Source: Parvularculaceae bacterium (lineage in GTDB: Bacteria > Pseudomonadota > Alphaproteobacteria > Caulobacterales > Parvularculaceae). From it: a stretch of 64,000 bases of DNA. This document shows positions 53,601-61,540 of this stretch, piece after piece. A program made the translations under genes and the position numbers. Numbering within the stretch: position 1 is the first letter of the stretch; each line of letters starts with the position of its first letter. Location: assembly GCA_021776475.1 (NCBI GenBank), contig JAJFFV010000006.1, positions 434,001-498,000 of the forward strand, given 5' to 3'. The notes beneath the pieces are model-generated. The model did not search any database, was not told where the DNA came from, and saw nothing but the letters and a program-made list of their open reading frames with translations.

Positions 53601-54220
53601 TCCAGTGCCTCGCTTTTGATCCTGGTCATGACGCGAAGGACCGTCGAAAAGCAGACCATGCAGAACAGGCTCATCAGTATCATGGCGGCCCCAAACAGCT
53701 TAAACTGATATTCTTCGAACGTAAACATCACGAGGTTTGAGGGTAACAGTAACACAAGCATAACAGCGCGGGCTGTGGCCGGTGTGGCACACAGACTGAT
53801 GCCGGTGATACAGGCCATTAAAGCCATCCAGCCGCCTATGATGAAAGCGCTTTCGGGCGGAATAATGTTTATGAAGTAAAGCGAGTAGGATGTCAGGATT
53901 GGCGCGAAAAACAGGGCACTGAGATTGATGAACCGCATCGATTTGTTGAGCTTCGAAATACTGAAGGACGAAACGTCTGCGGCTTGCCAATAGAGGTAGC
54001 GCCTAAGTGAGAACAACCCGACAAGAAAAAACGGCCAGGCCATCAGCATTTTGCCGAGGAACATCAAGGCAAAAACTGCAAGAAGCGATGTCGTACCCAT
54101 GCATGCAAACAGCATCGGCGACATGCCCTTGAAGACCTCGACGATCTGACGTTTCTCTGAAACGGACTTTTCGGGCGACAATGATCCCAAAAATGCCGAG
54201 AATATGCCGGCTAAACGCAT
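50687..54220 (-). CDS. Hybrid sensor histidine kinase with PAS and two receiver domains
   Basis: Inner-membrane kinase of 1177 residues. About six helices lie between residues 35 and 195. PAS domains follow at roughly 220-335 and 345-460, then a coiled coil (470-500) and a third PAS-like region (500-615). The HisKA domain has the phospho-acceptor His650 in FLANMSHEIRTPMNGVLG, and the HATPase has N, G1 and G2 boxes near 760-835. Receiver 1 has Asp940 in LDFQMPGMDG and receiver 2 has Asp1095 in LMDVSMPVMDG. There is no Hpt domain, so relay needs a separate Hpt. GAGGTAG precedes the ATG. No response-regulator gene adjoins; the signal is unknown. Confidence 0.94.
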   Translation of the reverse strand: MRLAGIFSAFLGSLSPEKSVSEKRQIVEVFKGMSPMLFACMGTTSLLAVFALMFLGKMLMAWPFFLVGLFSLRRYLYWQAADVSSFSISKLNKSMRFINLSALFFAPILTSYSLYFINIIPPESAFIIGGWMALMACITGISLCATPATARAVMLVLLLPSNLVMFTFEEYQFKLFGAAMILMSLFCMVCFSTVLRVMTRIKSEALEHAEKSQKLAVAMQDFVDLSHDIVWETDKSMRLTFMSDAIEAFSGAPSHKLIGKDPIALVNGDDAETAASIAAYHEALKNEGSFHHLVCNVITTDGKTLYADISGSPVYDDALEIMGYRGVITNITRQTFQRNEILKSEDRFRDFAELAADCLWETDAEHRYVYISDIVEKWTGKKSEDIIGSERGAFFGDTSPDEELANWREHLKDLETQRPFMDFLIKTKNDEILSTSGIPKFGQNGVFQGYRGYTKEITKEFQARLEANAAQAELQRANLILEERITERTNDLQKQTDLLQEILDTMGDSLVVLDSDLNIEMVNEKPDVSLPPGNWQVGHNARELYATACDMRLYDTKGHERNNAPDQKILECLDQRKSFRAVRMDVSGQHINEIFYPRADDGYVILYADVTRDARREEELRELSRDLRKSKEMAEDASRAKSEFLANMSHEIRTPMNGVLGMAELLLKSGLTKRQLEMAQVIMRSGDSLLTIINDILDFSKLEAGKMNIDKGQFDLRAAIEDVASLVSPNVQAKDLELMIRYQPNLPQHFIGDVGRLRQVITNLVGNAVKFTDGGHILIDIAGKPRGETVELCVSVKDTGCGIPTEKLSKVFNKFEQVDGSNSRKFEGTGLGLSISKKIIELMNGSISVTSTVGIGSTFFFNISLPLDQAAPQIKRLTTPVLSGIRVLVVDDNPVNRDILKEQLTDWSLVPVLVEDGFQALDTLKKAEEGNQPFGLAILDFQMPGMDGGELAQKIRKESQYPDLPLILLTSAGQRDDTSLQRSLDLAGYLVKPARSSLLLDTVICALHNKNVDTLKQTRKQLQDNAPTDIATADTAPTIDLAPGCRILVAEDNIVNQMVLKSMLEPVSCIVDIASNGQEAVYKYRENKYDIVLMDVSMPVMDGFQATAEIIAIRKTTGVHIPVIGVTAHAMREDEAKCLSAGMDGYMPKPIKQEKLIELVKAWVAEKSLPHPAEKSA

Positions 54221-56208: not shown

Positions 56209-56681
56209 GAGTCGTTTTCTTTCTCAAATTTATCCGCCAAAAAAAGCAGACCATCCGACTGTAGCATTACATTGATCGATCCGATATAAGCGACATTGTG
56301 TGGGTTTCGCAAATATCAAACGCAGCGGTTTCAATTCGGGGTGTATATCCCGTTAAATTGCACACCCGGCTTTGAGCTAAAACAACTTCCCTTACAGAAG
56401 ATATGTTGGGGAACTTTAGACACACGTCTCCCGCGGCGATTGAAATCAAAACCGCAAACTAGGGCAAGCGAGGCAGCTACCCAAAATTAACAAATAGCGA
56501 GCCGAAGAACAAAACAGGGTTAATCGTGTTTTGCGGTCAAAATAAACGGCGGTAAGAAAACCAGCCCAGATTATCGCAAGGTATCCAGTGATTTCCACGA
56601 GGGAGGAATTCAACTGGACTTGAGCTAAGTCAAAACCGCAGCGCCGATTTCGATATTGAATGAAACAAGGAGGTATTGAGC
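56209..56681. other. Upstream region of the AtuA gene and of the stress-protein cluster
   Basis: Divergent intergenic region of 470 bp without a credible gene. It holds the FNR-type palindrome at 56620-56633 and a strong ribosome-binding site for the universal stress gene. A possible -10 element (TATTGA, 56654-56659) would suit activation from the palindrome. Confidence 0.5.
56620..56633 (+). promoter_or_regulatory. FNR-type binding site upstream of the universal stress gene
   Basis: TTGAGCTAAGTCAA matches the TTGA(T/C)-N4-(A/G)TCAA palindrome at eight of ten informative bases. It ends 48 bp before the usp ATG. With its centre at -41.5 the start site would fall near 56668, just before the ribosome-binding site, as for a class II activated promoter. 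Confidence 0.6.
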
Positions 56682-57554
56682 ATGACCTACAAATCAATTT
56701 TTGTCCCTGCAATATCCAAAAAAACTTTCGGTCCTACCTTGGAAGCAGCATTGATTTTTGCCCGCAAGTTTGAAAGTCATATTGTTGCTTGTCAGGTGCG
56801 TCAGCCGTTTGAAGAATACATTCAGCCGCTGCCATATCCACTCGAATTGAATTCGTTGTCGCAGGCACGAGACATCCACGAAAAAGCTATGGACGCATTG
56901 ATCAGGAACCTAAGGAGCCAGTTTGAATCCATAACCCGAGATTATGATTGCGAGGAAGTTTCTCTGAACGGACAGCCGGTAACGCCGTCTTCAAGCGCAT
57001 CGTGGATGCTTCGTACGGGTGATCCCTTGGATATTCTGAATCGGTACGGCCGCATGACCGATATCGTGTTCATGCAACCTACCGCCTATCCGCCACAATC
57101 CCAAGAAACTGAACTGTGTCGGCAAGCGGTAACGGAAATTGGTCGCCCCATTTGCCTGATTCCCGAGATCGGCTTGAAAGAATTTCCGGCGAAAGCAGTG
57201 ATCGGCTGGAATGGGTCTTTAGAGGCGACGCGCGCGCTTGCCAGTTCCCTTCCGTTGTTGAAGAAAGTAAATAGCGTCACCCTGCTTGTGGCAGGTGAGT
57301 TGCCGCCAAATTCTCCTGACACGGAATCGGTTGCGAGATATCTGAAGTTTCATGGTGTCGAAGCGGATGTTGAGACGATTGAAAGATCAAAATCCTCAAT
57401 TGCGATACAGATCGCCGAGCGCTTAGATGATGGCGACGGAAATATTTTCGTCATGGGTGGCTACTCGCACAGCCGGGTGCGCGAGCGCGTGTTTGGTGGC
57501 GTGACACACGAATTGATACGCGCGCCGACATCGCCCATTTTTATCGCTCATTAA
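56682..57554 (+). CDS. Tandem-domain universal stress protein
   Basis: Protein of 290 residues made of two UspA-like domains. The second is the clearer: KAVIGWNGSLEATRALASSL is its first strand and helix, and the nucleotide-loop region FVMGGYSHSRVRERVFGGVT followed by PTSPIFIAH carries the G-x2-G-x9-G-(S/T)-type ending. The first domain (IFVPAISKKTFGPTLEAALI) is degenerate. Such proteins are induced under oxygen limitation in several Alphaproteobacteria. AAGGAGG lies eight bases before ATG 56682, and an FNR-type palindrome lies upstream. It is the first gene of a run of five plus-strand genes ending with fnrL. Confidence 0.9.
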   Translation: MTYKSIFVPAISKKTFGPTLEAALIFARKFESHIVACQVRQPFEEYIQPLPYPLELNSLSQARDIHEKAMDALIRNLRSQFESITRDYDCEEVSLNGQPVTPSSSASWMLRTGDPLDILNRYGRMTDIVFMQPTAYPPQSQETELCRQAVTEIGRPICLIPEIGLKEFPAKAVIGWNGSLEATRALASSLPLLKKVNSVTLLVAGELPPNSPDTESVARYLKFHGVEADVETIERSKSSIAIQIAERLDDGDGNIFVMGGYSHSRVRERVFGGVTHELIRAPTSPIFIAH

Positions 57555-57597
57555 TACGAATGATTGATGGAGACCGGTCTATGGCGGGTGCGATACA

Positions 57598-57870
57598 ATG
57601 ATGGTGATCAGGTTTGTTATCTCTGTGCTGGCAATTGCGATGATCGTGATGGGCTTCATCGCGATGATCAGTCCGGTGCCTCTCGGCATATTTGTCATTT
57701 TTCTGGGACTGATCATTCTTACATTGGCCAATCCACATGCGAGACCATTTCTAAAATGGATTCGCGAACGCTGGCCGTGGTTGAGTAAACGCTTGACCGA
57801 GGCGCAGGAAAACACTCCGCCAGCTTTATCCGATCCGTTGAAAGAAACCGAACCAGATCAGTGGCGGTAA
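57598..57870 (+). CDS. Small two-helix membrane protein
   Basis: Protein of 90 residues with two membrane helices joined by a tight Pro-Gly turn: FVISVLAIAMIVMGFIAMI, then SPVPLGIFVIFLGLIILTLA. A basic amphipathic stretch (RPFLKWIRERWPWLSKRL) and a polar tail follow. The S-P-x-P-x-G-I-F-x-I-x-L-G-L turn is shared with a group of short PGPGW-like membrane proteins, whose role is unknown. It sits 43 bp after the universal stress gene and probably shares its transcript. ATG 57601 is an equal alternative start. Confidence 0.72.
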   Translation: MMVIRFVISVLAIAMIVMGFIAMISPVPLGIFVIFLGLIILTLANPHARPFLKWIRERWPWLSKRLTEAQENTPPALSDPLKETEPDQWR

Positions 57871-57925
57871 ATATCCATATTAGTTTTTGCTGATACTAAG
57901 CATGTCAGGTACGAGGAGAAATTAG

Positions 57926-58243
57926 GTGAGAAACGAAAAATACAAACAAAAGTTGTTGAATAGATTAAAAGAGCTTGATGGTCGGTTGCTCGATATTGAG
58001 CATGAGCTGGACGCACCGGCGAGCAAAGACTCCGAGGAACGTGCTGTCGAGCGAGAAGATGACGAAGTGCTGGAGGCGCTGGGGAACAAGGGGCTCGCGG
58101 AAGTTAAGCAAATTCGCGCAGCACTCGTTCGGATGAACGAGGATACATATGGCGTCTGCGTAAATTGTAATGGTGAGATATCTGACGAACGTCTTACCGT
58201 GCTGCCGCATACAACGCTATGCCGCAAATGTGCCCCGGTATAG
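57926..58243 (+). CDS. DksA/TraR-type zinc-finger protein
   Basis: Protein of 105 residues: an N-terminal coiled coil (LLNRLKELDGRLLDIEHELD) followed by a C4 zinc finger, CVNC then sixteen-odd residues to CRKC. This is the TraR/YbiI/DksA-like family that acts in the RNA polymerase secondary channel or as a stress-linked regulator. The acidic pair expected at the coiled-coil tip is not clearly present, so DksA-like activity is uncertain. The start is GTG 57926 with GAGGAG eight bases upstream. It lies between the membrane protein and hemN in the FNR island. Confidence 0.88.
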   Translation: MRNEKYKQKLLNRLKELDGRLLDIEHELDAPASKDSEERAVEREDDEVLEALGNKGLAEVKQIRAALVRMNEDTYGVCVNCNGEISDERLTVLPHTTLCRKCAPV

Positions 58244-58263
58244 CCGGTAGGTCGCGATGGAAT

Positions 58264-58277
58264 TTGATTTATATCAC
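58264..58277 (+). promoter_or_regulatory. FNR-type binding site upstream of hemN
   Basis: TTGATTTATATCAC matches TTGAT-N4-ATCAA at nine of ten positions. Its end is 35 bp before the hemN ATG, so activation at -41.5 would start transcription essentially at the start codon, giving a leaderless message. No ribosome-binding site is seen before hemN, which agrees. Confidence 0.75.
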
Positions 58278-58312
58278 GACAACGGGACCCGGCAGCGTCC
58301 ACGGTTGTCATC

Positions 58313-59665
58313 ATGAACCCGAAATGGCTTAAATATCTTGATGTCAACGCACCACGGTACACAAGTTTTCCGTCGGCGCTTTTTTTTGACGAGCGTGTCG
58401 GCGCCGATGTTTACGAGAGCGCCTTGTCTCGTGTTTCAATGTATGAGCCGCTTTCGTTATATATTCACATTCCCTTTTGCCGACAGCTTTGCTGGTATTG
58501 TGGCTGCAATATGGTCGTCGAAAATCAGTATGAACGAGCCGTTCGGTACGTCGATTTATTGATCAGAGAGATAGAAATGGTAGCCGATACTCTCGGCGGT
58601 TGCGGCGAGGTCGTCAGTATCCACCTGGGTGGCGGAACACCGAATTATCTCAATATTGAAGACCTTGGCAGGATTTTCGACAGCATCGAACTCAATCTCG
58701 GACTGACAGACAAGGCAAATATCGCGATAGAGATCGATCCGCGCCTGTGTGAGACAGGCTTGATCAAAATGCTCACGAAGATCGGCATCAACAGATTGAG
58801 CATAGGCGTGCAGGATTTTGATAGTTCCGTCCAGGAAGCGATCAATCGTGAGCAACCCTACGAATTGGTTGAAGCCTGCGTCACGGAAATGCGGGAAAAT
58901 GCGCAAGCTGATATCAGCTTTGATCTGCTGTACGGTCTCCCGCGCCAAAGTACGGAAGGGTTTGTCGATACTCTGGAGAAAGCCGTATCCCTGTCTCCTG
59001 ACCGGATTTCACTTTTTGGTTACGCGCATCTGCCATCGAAGCTGAAGCATCAGCGCGTTATCGATGAGACACAGCTGCCCGGCAAATTGCCACGCTATCA
59101 ATTGGCAGAAATGGCTGGCAGGTATCTGGTAGATGAAGGCTACGTGTGTGTCGGGTTCGATCATTTTGCGAAACCGTCGAACTCTCTCGCGGTTGCGGTG
59201 CACGCGGGCACTCTGAAGAGAAACTTTCAGGGCTTCACGGATGATATTGCCAATGCAACTATCGGTCTCGGTGTTTCGTCCGTTAGCTTGGTAAGAGGGG
59301 TGTACGCCCAGAACATCAAACGGTCTGATGAATATGCGTCCCGGGTGTCGAAGGGAAAATTGCCGACTGCAAAAGGTTGGATCAAGACGATGGAGGACGA
59401 ATTCTGGGCGAAAGTTATTTCGGATTTGTTGTGTTATGGCAAAACTGACTTGCATGAGCATGCTCATATTTCCGGCGGCTCGCTGAGCGATTTGATGGCT
59501 GTGTCTAGAAAACGAATCATCTCCCTTGAAAAAGACGGCCTCGCTGAATGGCGAGACGGTATTGTGATCATTCCAGATCAGGCAAAACACTTCTCAAGGG
59601 TAGTAGCGGCCGCCTTTGATCCCTATATAAATCGTGGGAATTTTTCCCTGTCACAAGCTGTATAA
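58313..59665 (+). CDS. hemN: Oxygen-independent coproporphyrinogen III oxidase
   Basis: Radical-SAM enzyme converting coproporphyrinogen III to protoporphyrinogen IX without oxygen in haem synthesis. The 450-residue protein has the cluster motif C-x3-C-x2-C at Cys56, Cys60 and Cys63 plus the conserved Cys65 in FCRQLCWYCGC, then HLGGGTPNYL for SAM binding, IEIDPRLCETGL, NRLSIGVQDFDSSVQEAINR and DLLYGLPRQS. The N-terminus YLDVNAPRYTSFPSALFF is typical of HemN proper as opposed to the HemW paralogue, and the C-terminal HemN domain is present. An FNR-type site lies just upstream and fnrL follows directly, the usual arrangement in Alphaproteobacteria. Confidence 0.95.
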   Translation: MNPKWLKYLDVNAPRYTSFPSALFFDERVGADVYESALSRVSMYEPLSLYIHIPFCRQLCWYCGCNMVVENQYERAVRYVDLLIREIEMVADTLGGCGEVVSIHLGGGTPNYLNIEDLGRIFDSIELNLGLTDKANIAIEIDPRLCETGLIKMLTKIGINRLSIGVQDFDSSVQEAINREQPYELVEACVTEMRENAQADISFDLLYGLPRQSTEGFVDTLEKAVSLSPDRISLFGYAHLPSKLKHQRVIDETQLPGKLPRYQLAEMAGRYLVDEGYVCVGFDHFAKPSNSLAVAVHAGTLKRNFQGFTDDIANATIGLGVSSVSLVRGVYAQNIKRSDEYASRVSKGKLPTAKGWIKTMEDEFWAKVISDLLCYGKTDLHEHAHISGGSLSDLMAVSRKRIISLEKDGLAEWRDGIVIIPDQAKHFSRVVAAAFDPYINRGNFSLSQAV

Positions 59666-59722
59666 ACCACCAGCCCCTGAAACTGGCCTTGCTTCACTGA
59701 CCAACAGGTTTAGGCTGTGGAT

Positions 59723-60418
59723 ATGTCGGAAGCACACGATTGCGCATTTCAAAGGGCTAACGCGAGTTTCTGTGCGCTTTGCAAAGTGCGCGAGCAGTCG
59801 ATTTGTGCGGAGCTCGATCTAGGGGAAATGGAAGACCTCGCCAAGACAATGGCGCACCGACCCGTAAAGGAGGGCAAGGCTCTGATCGCTGAAGGTGAAG
59901 AGAATGACAGCTTGTATATTGTAGTAGACGGCAGTTTTCGATTGGTGCGCCATCTGGTCGACGGGCGTCGCCAGATTGTTGGATTTCTCTTCCGCGGTGA
60001 TTATCTGGGAATGCAGCCAACCGAGTCGAGTTTTCATACGGCCGAAGCGCTGGAGCCGGGCCTGGTATGTCGGTTTCCGCATTCGCTTCTTGATGAGCTG
60101 AGCGTCCGGCACCCAGGCATAAAAAACCGGCTGCTGGCTCGAGGCCAGACCGAAATGCACAAAGCTGAAGAACATATCGTGCTGCTCGGCAAAAAAACCG
60201 CCGAAGAGCGTGTTATGAGTTTCCTCGAATCGCTGCGCGACAAGAACGAGGCAGATGACGATACAATATTCCTGTCGATGTCCAGGCAAGACGTGGCTGA
60301 CTACCTTGGCTTAAGATTGGAAACATTGAGCCGGACGCTTGCGGTACTTAAAAAAAGAGGTGATCTCCAGGAAGTCTCAGGCCGACGTATAACTTTTAAT
60401 GGTTCGGCTTCAGACTGA
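59723..60418 (+). CDS. fnrL: FnrL-type oxygen-responsive Crp/Fnr regulator
   Basis: Transcription factor of 231 residues: N-terminal cluster region, cyclic-nucleotide-type beta-roll, dimer helix and C-terminal winged helix. Cys17, Cys20 and Cys28 (C-x2-C-x7-C) together with Cys116 in LVCRFPH provide the four ligands expected for an oxygen-labile [4Fe-4S] cluster; Cys7 is extra. The recognition helix SRQDVADYLGLRLETLSRTL has the Glu and Ser-Arg that read TTGA half-sites in FNR. ATG 59723 has TAGG eight bases upstream; GTG 59717 is in frame. Its 3' end overlaps the convergent DUF2189 gene by 9 bp. Confidence 0.94.
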   Translation: MSEAHDCAFQRANASFCALCKVREQSICAELDLGEMEDLAKTMAHRPVKEGKALIAEGEENDSLYIVVDGSFRLVRHLVDGRRQIVGFLFRGDYLGMQPTESSFHTAEALEPGLVCRFPHSLLDELSVRHPGIKNRLLARGQTEMHKAEEHIVLLGKKTAEERVMSFLESLRDKNEADDDTIFLSMSRQDVADYLGLRLETLSRTLAVLKKRGDLQEVSGRRITFNGSASD

Positions 60419-61204
60419 CGAAGAGTTCTTTAGTTCAGGAAAAACTTCACGGTAGGCGTGCCATGTAGCGTGTCCGAGCAGAGGAAACACAATAATCAGT
60501 CCGACGAACCCTGTGATGATGCCGAGGCCAACAAGAATCACGATGAGCCAGGCCCAGTGCATCATAATACCCGGTTCCCGCTTCACTACCTGAACACTAC
60601 GTTTCACAGCTTCGAGCGCGTGCATTTTCTTATCCAGGAGCATGGGAATAGAAAAGGCGGTCATGGCAAACAGAGCGAGCGCTATTCCGGCACCAATAAT
60701 TGTGCCAAATATAAGCAATAACAGTCCGTCTGGCGTTTCAAGTATAAATTTTGTAAACTGGGATAGCGGCATATAAGATGTATTTGCAAATAATGCATAC
60801 AGTATCGCCGTAATTCTGGCCCACACGAGCAGACCAAACATTATCAGGAAACCGATATAAGCAATGTGGATCGGTGACTTTGTTGTTACAAAGATGATAT
60901 CGAAGATCGAGAAATCCAGTCCGGTCTCATACCGCCGGCTCATCTCGTAGAGACCAACAGCCATCATTGGACCAACCAGCGCAAATGTGCCTGCTGCAGC
61001 TGGGATCATTGCGGAAAGCCCGATATTCCATAAGCCAAAGCTGATGGTCAAACCAATGGCGACAAAAGCCGCACCATAAGAAAGGCTGAGCGCTGGCGTA
61101 CGCCAGAGATCGGCCCAGCCTTTTGACAGCCAGCGCCACGGGGCTTCGGTTGAAAGCTCAGTTTTACGTTCGTCGACCATCAGTTGGGGATTCGCGTCCT
61201 CCAT
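60410..61204 (-). CDS. DUF2189 membrane protein
   Basis: Protein of 264 residues with a polar N-terminus (WRWLSKGWADLWRTP) and about six membrane helices, for example LIVILVGLGIITGFVGLIIV near the end. The closing FPLLGHATWHAYREVF is the hallmark of the DUF2189 family, frequent in Alphaproteobacteria next to respiratory or FNR-regulated genes; function unknown. GGAG lies seven bases before the ATG and an FNR-type palindrome about 50 bp upstream. It is convergent with fnrL. Confidence 0.9.
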   Translation of the reverse strand: MEDANPQLMVDERKTELSTEAPWRWLSKGWADLWRTPALSLSYGAAFVAIGLTISFGLWNIGLSAMIPAAAGTFALVGPMMAVGLYEMSRRYETGLDFSIFDIIFVTTKSPIHIAYIGFLIMFGLLVWARITAILYALFANTSYMPLSQFTKFILETPDGLLLLIFGTIIGAGIALALFAMTAFSIPMLLDKKMHALEAVKRSVQVVKREPGIMMHWAWLIVILVGLGIITGFVGLIIVFPLLGHATWHAYREVFPELKNSSSV

Positions 61205-61224
61205 TGTTCAACTCCGAGCTTTCG

Positions 61225-61540
61225 CTAACGATACATCAACCCTGAAGCAGCAAATTGACCTCGATCAAGTCCGGGTACAACGCCCAGATATTCGCCATGA
61301 TCGGTAACCGTAAGAAAATCCAATGTTGGGTCGGCGAGCTGAATATCACACCACCATGCCGCTATCGGGCGCAAGTGGGTTTCCACATCCTGCAGTTCTC
61401 TGCACTCCGTTTGCTAAATCAAGTAGTTGGGTAAGGCACAGGCCAACCGGGCGTATATTGGTGTAATCAAGCCGATGGCAACCCTTCCGTTCACGTGTGA
61501 GCAAGCGATGTACTGACAGAACGTGATTCAACCCAGGCAT
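61225..61540 (-). pseudogene. Frame-broken gene remnant of unknown family
   Basis: On the minus strand a frame from 61540 codes for VLSVHRLLTRERKGCHRLDY and NIRPVGLCLTQLLDLANGV. After a shift near 61410 another frame, open from 61413 to the TAG at 61225-61227, gives ELQDVETHLRPIAAWWCDIQ, LDFLTVTDHGEYLGVVPG and LDRGQFAASGLMYR. Both parts look like real protein, and joining them gives one domain-sized polypeptide, but I cannot name the family. It lies immediately downstream of the AT-rich TPR gene. Confidence 0.45.
61255..61268 (-). promoter_or_regulatory. FNR-type binding site upstream of the DUF2189 gene
   Basis: TTGACCTCGATCAA (plus-strand reading) matches TTGA(T/C)-N4-ATCAA. Activation at -41.5 would start minus-strand transcription near 61220, with TATCGT as a possible -10 and a 16-nt leader containing the ribosome-binding site. 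It lies inside remnant coding sequence, so chance origin is possible. Confidence 0.6.

What the first reader, a model, noticed from the sequence alone, without database searches (positions are those of the whole stretch)
56620..61268. Compact FNR regulon island with three FNR-type palindromes
usp, a small membrane protein, a DksA/TraR protein, hemN, fnrL and a DUF2189 gene lie together, and TTGA-N6-TCA(A/C) palindromes occur 35-50 bp before usp, hemN and the DUF2189 gene. The regulator thus probably controls its own neighbourhood. The unknown membrane proteins (57598-57870 and DUF2189) and the zinc-finger protein become candidates for new parts of a microaerobic response.
Basis: partly seen in the sequence, partly recalled or inferred. 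Interest (0 to 1): 0.6.

Follow-up and report, generated by a model that had tools for sequence, protein, structure and literature searches.

The report
Low-oxygen gene cluster without its oxidase
A bacterium related to Parvularcula keeps the standard low-oxygen control gene and its usual neighbours but appears to have lost the high-affinity oxidase normally found between them, and one leftover neighbour of unknown function proves to be an old companion of that oxidase in many related bacteria.

Summary
A usp-like gene, PGPGW, a DksA-like gene, hemN and an FNR-type regulator lie in line, DUF2189 converges on them, and the three palindromes stand 48, 35 and 50 nt before usp-like, hemN and DUF2189. 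With a matrix of 48 published Rhodobacter FnrL sites they rank 3, 4 and 1 of 63,987 window positions. Two are weak alone, but relatives keep them: hemN in 18 of 19 loci, usp-like in 14 of 21, DUF2189 in 9 of 15 copies near ccoN and 0 of 14 others.

Most of this is the published alphaproteobacterial FNR core regulon, a DksA gene included (PMC2908626, PMC4634722), so the zinc-finger protein is no new part. Beyond it: (1) no ccoN and no cydA were found in the genome; in relatives cbb3 genes sit between fnrL and DUF2189, whose ends overlap here. (2) The DUF2189 copy belongs to a subfamily linked to ccoN in several alphaproteobacterial families. (3) hemN has a fixed site-to-start spacing and no Shine-Dalgarno word: predicted leaderless. 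(4) Two same-genus relatives carry cytochrome bd genes beside hemN-fnrL instead. DUF2189's function is open; its low-confidence model resembles CysZ and choline-transporter-like proteins.

The parts
56620..56633 (+). FNR-type palindrome TTGAGCTAAGTCAA, 48 nt before the usp-like ATG
   Evidence: a site (TTGAGATAAATCAA) 43 nt before the aligned start in two same-genus relatives G001 and G003; matrix rank 3
56682..57554 (+). Usp-like protein, 290 aa
   Evidence: PF00582 only 14.8 bits, below cut-off; relatives over most of the length, 14 of 21 with an FNR-type site
57598..57870 (+). PGPGW small membrane protein, 90 aa
   Evidence: PF09656 27.3 bits, above cut-off; 59% identical stretch between usp-like and hemN in G003 (L211)
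57926..58243 (+). short DksA/TraR-type C4 zinc-finger protein, 105 aa
   Evidence: PF21173 and PF01258 above cut-off; PDB 2kq9 E 3e-22; its four best relatives each have a site (3 exact, 1 with one mismatch)
58264..58277 (+). FNR-type palindrome TTGATTTATATCAC, 35 nt before the hemN ATG
   Evidence: 18 of 19 genomes (window included) have the site, each 33-36 nt before the ATG
58300..58305 (+). -10-like element CACGGT, 13 to 8 nt before the hemN ATG; no Shine-Dalgarno word before the ATG
58313..59665 (+). hemN, oxygen-independent coproporphyrinogen III oxidase, 450 aa
   Evidence: TIGR00538 404.5 bits, cut-off 324.95
59717..60418 (+). fnrL-like FNR-type regulator, 233 aa, GTG start, cysteines 19, 22, 30, 118
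   Evidence: cysteines and E202xxSR invariant in the 18 aligned sequences, window plus 17 relatives
60410..60418 (.). convergent ends of fnrL (stop 60416-60418) and DUF2189 (stop 60410-60412) overlap; many relatives carry the cbb3 genes here
60410..61204 (-). DUF2189 membrane protein, 264 aa, of the cbb3-linked subfamily
   Evidence: PF09955 110.7 bits; tree; C-terminal tail longer than in L048, L051, L052 and L300
61255..61268 (-). FNR-type palindrome TTGATCGAGGTCAA (strand -), 50 nt before the DUF2189 ATG
   Evidence: best matrix score in the window; TATCGT starts at the 22nd base after it

Best explanation
This is the alphaproteobacterial FNR core-regulon island from which the cbb3 oxidase genes have been lost. 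Inferred mechanism: when oxygen falls, the regulator holds a [4Fe-4S] cluster on Cys19, 22, 30 and 118, dimerises and binds the three palindromes as a class II activator, raising (a) usp-like, PGPGW and DksA-like, (b) hemN and, by read-through, its own gene, (c) DUF2189. HemN supplies heme without oxygen; the Usp-like and DksA-like proteins adjust survival and RNA polymerase output. In many relatives the same signal switches on cbb3 genes lying between fnrL and DUF2189; here that block is gone and the two 3' ends meet. With no ccoN and no cydA found, the likely low-oxygen respiration is nitrate reduction by NarGHJI beside the aa3 oxidase. DUF2189 is an integral membrane protein of an old cbb3-linked subfamily, probably a transport or maturation factor of microaerobic respiration whose job is not strictly tied to cbb3. 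Shown from sequence: gene order, sites, their conservation, no ccoN or cydA match, the DUF2189 subfamily. Inferred: binding, oxygen response, direction of regulation, loss rather than mere absence, leaderless hemN message, function of DUF2189.
For: Conserved cysteines and recognition residues in 18 aligned sequences. Matrix ranks 1, 3, 4. Sites kept in relatives: hemN 18 of 19, usp-like 14 of 21, four best DksA relatives 4 of 4, against 18 of 109 other upstream regions (Fisher 4e-11 for hemN and 8e-6 for usp-like); DUF2189 9 of 15 near ccoN and 0 of 14 elsewhere. Order hemN-fnrL-ccoN-O-P-G-I-DUF2189 whole in six fetched relatives, L048, L050, L051, L052, L059, L060. No ccoN and no cydA in a genome rated 99.49% complete; one aa3 COX1; narGHJI and a NarK fusion with two sites. 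In G003, same genus, usp-like, PGPGW and hemN with both sites on one contig and the end of ccoN up to DUF2189, with its site, on another. Published FNR core: cbb3, Usp, FNR, HemN, DksA.
Against: usp and hemN sites are weak alone, and hits above their score are no more than chance gives. Two other Crp/Fnr proteins of this genome, a FixK-like one and FtrB, could use the same sites. G005 (L048), the closest relative by FnrL, has no such hemN site, only half-sites 5 bp apart. ccoO, ccoG, ccoH, ccoI and ccoS were not sought in the whole genome. Six of 15 DUF2189 copies near ccoN have no site within one mismatch. 7 of 109 unrelated upstream regions also hold an exact palindrome. PMC4999443 found only FixK, no FnrN, in its Caulobacterales genomes. 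No expression data.
Confidence: 0.75

Rival explanations
1. The sites are used mainly by another Crp/Fnr regulator (the FixK-like protein on contig 3 or FtrB by narK), and fnrL is a passenger of the island.
For: Both paralogues exist in this genome with TTGA-N6-TCAA sites at their own promoters. Dufour et al. say that FNR, FixK and DNR recognise very similar sites.
Against: In G023, G029 and G035 (drafts of 99, 98 and 84% completeness) the FnrL relative is the only match to this regulator at E 1e-3, yet the hemN and usp-like sites are there. Usp, HemN and a DksA gene were assigned to FNR, not FixK or DNR, in the published profiles, though another Usp was assigned to DNR. The regulator keeps all four cysteines.
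Confidence: 0.15
2. The island is ordinary: gene order merely varies, and the missing cbb3 genes are an assembly or detection gap.
For: The genome is in 6 contigs; in G011 and G033 ccoN lies away from fnrL. Only ccoN was sought.
Against: The fnrL-DUF2189 junction is continuous inside a 997-kb contig. The ccoN search gave no candidate, while the same model matched in 41 of 61 genomes, a few of them fragments or weak. G002 and G004 of the same genus gave no ccoN match either and carry cydA beside hemN-fnrL.
Confidence: 0.07
3. DUF2189 is a chance neighbour of cbb3 genes and has no part in microaerobic life.
For: It is kept here without ccoN, as in G006, G009 and G010; 20 of 62 tree rows form a side with no such link. 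15 of 32 DUF2189-negative genomes have ccoN.
Against: 25 of 29 DUF2189-positive genomes have ccoN (Fisher 0.0014; 0.009 for complete genomes only); 15 of 29 have it within 10 kb, 13 of these at 6.4-7.1 kb. In 12 of 30 class loci, the best-scoring ones, ccoN lies within the 3.4-kb stretch. All 30 linked rows fall on one side of a 100/99 branch with the window copy.
Confidence: 0.2

Closest known systems
FNR core regulon of Alphaproteobacteria (Dufour et al. 2010, PMC2908626), e.g. RSP0689-RSP0699 and RSP0166 of Rhodobacter sphaeroides
   Same: Regulator, HemN, Usp and a DksA gene under TTGA-N6-TCAA sites; in R. sphaeroides the locus numbers of cbb3, usp, fnrL and hemZ run on
   Different: No ccoN here; DksA-like gene inside the cluster; PGPGW and DUF2189 are not named in Table 1 of that paper (one hypothetical FNR member, 2905, is unidentified)
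FnrL regulons of Rhodobacter capsulatus and R. sphaeroides (Kumka and Bauer 2015, PMC4634722; Imam et al. 2014, PMC4263372)
   Same: uspA and dksA2 listed as directly activated in both species
   Different: No DUF2189 in the passages I saw; heme genes not directly controlled in R. capsulatus, with hemH a possible exception
Fnr boxes of Sphingopyxis granuli TFA (PMC7713065)
   Same: uspA, hemN2 and ccoN have Fnr boxes centred at -41.5 to -42.5 from the transcription start, the class II position; nitrate respiration
   Different: cbb3 present; a leaderless hemN is not mentioned in the passages seen
CysZ sulfate permease (6d79, 3tx3) and choline transporter-like/PNS1 proteins (9f63, 9qu3, 7wwb)
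   Same: Predicted DUF2189 fold aligns at Z 12.1-13.6, next row 5.5
   Different: No sequence relation found (hhalign probability 0.03% to E. coli CysZ); model confidence low

Membership tests
FNR-type oxygen-sensing Crp/Fnr regulator | Sensor and Crp-type helix-turn-helix domains | tested here: met
   PF00027, PF13545 and PF00325 above cut-off
FNR-type oxygen-sensing Crp/Fnr regulator | Four cysteines for a [4Fe-4S] cluster (three N-terminal, one central) | tested here: met
   C19, C22, C30, C118 invariant in 18 of 18 aligned; their role is recalled from E. coli FNR and FnrL
FNR-type oxygen-sensing Crp/Fnr regulator | E-x-x-S-R in the recognition helix | tested here: met
   E202, S205, R206 invariant; meaning recalled
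FNR-type oxygen-sensing Crp/Fnr regulator | Oxygen-labile cluster and oxygen-dependent DNA binding | not testable with these tools
   needs protein work
NCBIfam NF045989 FnrL (Rhodobacter equivalog) | Score over the curated cut-off of 300 bits | tested here: not met
   131.2 bits, level with the FixK model (131.0); so called FnrL-like, not that equivalog
HemN | TIGR00538 over cut-off | tested here: met
   404.5 against 324.95 bits
Published alphaproteobacterial FNR core-regulon island | FNR gene with hemN, usp and a DksA gene under FNR-type sites | tested here: met
   usp identity weak
Published alphaproteobacterial FNR core-regulon island | cbb3 oxidase genes in the neighbourhood | tested here: not met
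   fnrL and DUF2189 overlap; no ccoN match in the genome
Universal stress protein (PF00582) | Score over cut-off | tested here: not met
   14.8 bits against 24; called Usp-like only
DksA/TraR C4 zinc-finger proteins | Pfam DksA N-terminal and zinc-finger domains, two CxxC pairs | tested here: met
   PF21173 83.9 and PF01258 35.7 bits; CVNC and CRKC in the sequence
DksA equivalog (TIGR02420) | Score over 115.5 bits | tested here: not met
   38.9 bits; a short DksA-like protein, not DksA itself
DUF2189 (PF09955) | Score over the gathering cut-off | tested here: met
   110.7 against 26.2 bits
CysZ / choline-transporter-like fold | Same fold over most of the chain | tested here: inconclusive
   Z 12.1-13.6 over 194-223 residues, five rows, next 5.5, but pLDDT 67.8, no Foldseek match under 1e-3, no sequence support

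The most novel reading that the evidence does not exclude
A subfamily of DUF2189 is an unrecognised partner of microaerobic respiration in Alphaproteobacteria: a membrane permease or maturation factor of CysZ/choline-transporter-like fold, placed next to cbb3 genes and often under FNR-type sites, that works beyond cbb3, since this genome keeps it with a strong site and no ccoN. Together with a leaderless, FNR-driven hemN message conserved in the family, the hemN-fnrL locus would be a swap site for the high-affinity oxidase: cbb3 in many relatives, cytochrome bd in two, none here.
Probability: 0.3. Interest if true: 0.65.

Novelty: new variant of a known kind. Interest (0 to 1): 0.5.

Why it matters
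The published core of this regulon is built round cbb3 oxidase genes. A genome that keeps the regulator, HemN, Usp-like, DksA-like and DUF2189 without ccoN helps to separate what serves the oxidase from what serves low-oxygen life at large. It points to DUF2189, for which two text searches showed no functional work, as a testable part of that life, and predicts a leaderless hemN message whose promoter and start codon must move together.

Tried and rejected
Plain consensus matching in the window is not significant, so I did not rest on it. The matrix scans give high ranks but no more hits than expected at that threshold. A genome-contig scan with the window FnrL found nothing; with alignment A1 it gave 80 loci, a capped list. 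Solved-structure searches for DUF2189, single and as profile, gave no match; Foldseek gave none under 1e-3; a profile comparison with CysZ failed. I dropped the idea that the HATWHAYR motif marks cbb3-linked copies, because the other subfamily has it too. Text searches for Parvularculaceae with cbb3 (none) and for leaderless with hemN (one unrelated listing) or with FNR (one listing, not read) gave nothing on the point; a search on cbb3 assembly factors listed four papers, of which I saw passages of one.

Corrections. In one search my list 'DUF2189 not next to cco' (0 of 20) wrongly held six copies within 10 kb of ccoN, and its 'next to' list (8 of 13) was incomplete; the corrected counts, one copy per genome, are and are the ones I use. 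The hemN sets differ: one search has 19 loci without the window (one, L066, has its site at -77), one search has 19 genomes with the window and without L066; each has 18 with a site and L048 without. The usp set keeps only loci whose match starts at residue 1 (15, window included). The -10 position was chosen after I had looked at the alignment. The first matrix left out weaker printed sites; one search uses all 48 that I saw. Presence tables were typed by hand, with G034 (very weak ccoN match) left out.
Full report
What is there. The window lies in a 3.41-Mb genome of 6 contigs, rated 99.49% complete. The genes usp-like (56682-57554), PGPGW (57598-57870), DksA-like (57926-58243), hemN (58313-59665) and fnrL-like (59717-60418) run on the plus strand with gaps of 43, 55, 69 and 51 nt; DUF2189 (61204-60410) converges and its end overlaps the end of fnrL. 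Families. The Usp identity is weak.

The regulator. It has the cysteine arrangement C-x2-C-x7-C plus a central cysteine, invariant in the window and 17 relatives that I aligned, as are E202, S205 and R206. That these hold an oxygen-labile [4Fe-4S] cluster is established knowledge of FNR proteins, not tested here. It misses the cut-off of the Rhodobacter FnrL equivalog model (131.2 against 300 bits), so I call it FnrL-like.

The sites. All three are real. With a matrix of the 48 distinct FnrL sites in the passages I saw of PMC2908626 and PMC4634722 they score 18.4 (DUF2189), 13.8 (usp-like) and 11.6 (hemN), ranks 1, 3 and 4; the second rank, 53616, lies inside a gene. Alone that is weak: 4 positions at or above the hemN score against 3.25 expected. 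Conservation decides. With up to one mismatch and within about 120 nt of the start, a site is found for hemN in 18 of 19 loci, usp-like in 14 of 21, the four best DksA-like relatives in 4 of 4 and ccoN in 14 of 20, against 18 of 109 other upstream regions of the same loci; exact sites 3, 13, 3 and 12 against 7 of 109. The control set may itself hold regulated genes. For DUF2189: 9 of 15 copies within 10 kb of ccoN (5 exact) and 0 of 14 others, Fisher 0.0007. Rows are related species, so these p-values are rough. Failures: L048, the closest relative, has the hemN half-sites 5 bp apart instead of 6; 7 of 21 usp-like and 6 of 15 DUF2189 copies have none.

hemN promoter. In 19 genomes, window included, 18 have the site and all 18 place its end 33-36 nt before the ATG, so its centre lies at -40.5 to -43.5 from the start codon. 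That is the class II position: most Fnr boxes of Sphingopyxis are centred at -40.5 to -42.5 from the transcription start (passages of PMC7713065). A [CT]AnnnT element starts at -14 to -12 in 13 of 19; 2000 shuffles gave a mean of 1.35 and a maximum of 6; I chose that position after seeing the alignment. None of 19 has a Shine-Dalgarno word; 14 of 15 usp-like genes have one. The one mismatch allowed falls on the last base of the downstream half-site (G 7, T 5, C 3, A 3 in the 18), never on the first base of the upstream one. I infer a leaderless hemN message that starts at its ATG. The first of the two ABC transporter genes beside cydA in L054 and L055 also has a site 34 nt before its called start.

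The missing oxidase. In relatives the order is hemN, fnrL, ccoN, ccoO, ccoP, ccoG, ccoI, then DUF2189 convergent; L048, L050, L051, L052, L059 and L060 show it whole, others are cut by contig or stretch ends, and some (L053, L054, L055, L062, L063) have hemN-fnrL without it. The window genome gave no ccoN match and no cydA match, one COX1 of CtaD type, and narG, narH, narJ, narI and a double NarK, with two sites between NarK and an FtrB-type regulator. G003 of the same genus has usp-like, PGPGW and hemN with both sites on one contig, and the end of ccoN up to DUF2189 with its site on another. The window DUF2189 ends in PELKNSSSV after HATWHAYREVF, where L048, L051, L052 and L300 stop within a few residues; this fits a deletion that joined the two 3' ends, though some other copies also have tails. 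Of 19 genomes with an FnrL relative at about 50% identity or more (own included), G000, G002 and G004 have no ccoN match (in G001 and G003 it is a contig-end fragment). G002 and G004 carry cydA beside hemN-fnrL, with two ABC transporter genes in the place of cydDC by eye; cydB was confirmed in G004.

DUF2189. ccoN is present in 25 of 29 DUF2189-positive and 15 of 32 DUF2189-negative genomes (one very weak match, G034, left out); it lies within 10 kb in 15 of the 29. In 289 genomes of the class 104 have DUF2189. Of the 30 loci fetched, chosen by best score and so not random, 12 hold ccoN as well; all 12 have a site within 250 nt of the DUF2189 start (11 exact, 1 with one mismatch), and none of the other 18 has. 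Within 130 nt it is 11 of 12. Where the two genes are divergent the site may serve ccoN only. A tree of 62 rows (63 extracted, one too short) splits 100/99 into 20 rows without any link and 42 rows holding all 30 linked copies, 11 unlinked and the window copy, which groups with G003 and G005 (94/47). The predicted structure (4 sequences, pLDDT 67.8, pTM 0.63) had no Foldseek match under 1e-3; VIA-align put CysZ and choline-transporter-like proteins at Z 12.1-13.6 and the next row at 5.5, in a range the tool warns can be met by helical bundles. hhalign with E. coli CysZ gave nothing. I treat the fold as a lead.

What is known. Table 1 of PMC2908626 (first part of that section) lists cbb3 structural and assembly genes, Usp RSP0697, FNR RSP0698, HemN RSP0699, OmpW, DnaK suppressor protein RSP0166 and one hypothetical protein among the FNR members; uspA and dksA are listed as directly activated in both Rhodobacter species (passages of PMC4634722; RSP_0166 also bound by FnrL in PMC4263372, passages). 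The same 2010 paper notes that FNR genes are often near cbb3 genes, and that some species have regulators without the matching core regulon (passages). PMC4999443 reports hemN and cco as FnrN/FixK targets and only FixK in Caulobacterales (passages). PMC5829832 (passages) shows a copper importer gene next to ccoGHIS in Rhizobiales, a precedent for further cbb3 partners beside the cluster. A full-text search for DUF2189 found one paper, on mycobacteria (listing only), and none for COG5473, a number I recalled; nothing wider is claimed.

Verdict. The zinc-finger part is already known, PGPGW is unproven, DUF2189 is the real lead, and the unnoticed point is the oxidase that is missing.

Noticed in passing
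L180 4066-4854 (own genome contig 3, 24066-24854): FixK-like Crp/Fnr protein with an unusual cysteine-rich N-terminus and E-T-V-C-R where the window regulator has E-T-L-S-R; a perfect TTGATCTTGATCAA lies at its start.
   Followed up: partly
L180 10185-10661 and L198 4221-4694: Two similar small cytochrome c-like proteins at distant places, each about 57-59 nt after a strong FNR-type site; both just pass the Pfam cytochrome c cut-off.
   Followed up: partly
L054 3213-8121, L055 10429-16472: cydA and two ABC transporter genes (plus cydB in L055) beside hemN-fnrL in two same-genus genomes without a ccoN match, with FNR-type sites; the first transporter gene starts 34 nt after the site, the same spacing as hemN (one transporter gene of L055 was not tested).
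   Followed up: partly
L182 3879-5202: A second tandem Usp gene (UspE-like, below cut-off) with TTGATCCAAGTCAA upstream, divergent from a small 109-aa gene.
   Followed up: no
L062 1930-3111, L063 13580-14782: In two relatives whose ccoN lies elsewhere, an NnrS gene lies near fnrL.
   Followed up: partly
window 53616-53629: TTGATCCTGGTCAT, second-best matrix score in the window, lies inside a gene; probably chance.
   Followed up: no
L081 2036-10665, L124 4608-6788: Alphaproteobacterial records with more distant FnrL relatives in which fnrL, DUF2189 and cbb3 genes lie close together.
   Followed up: partly
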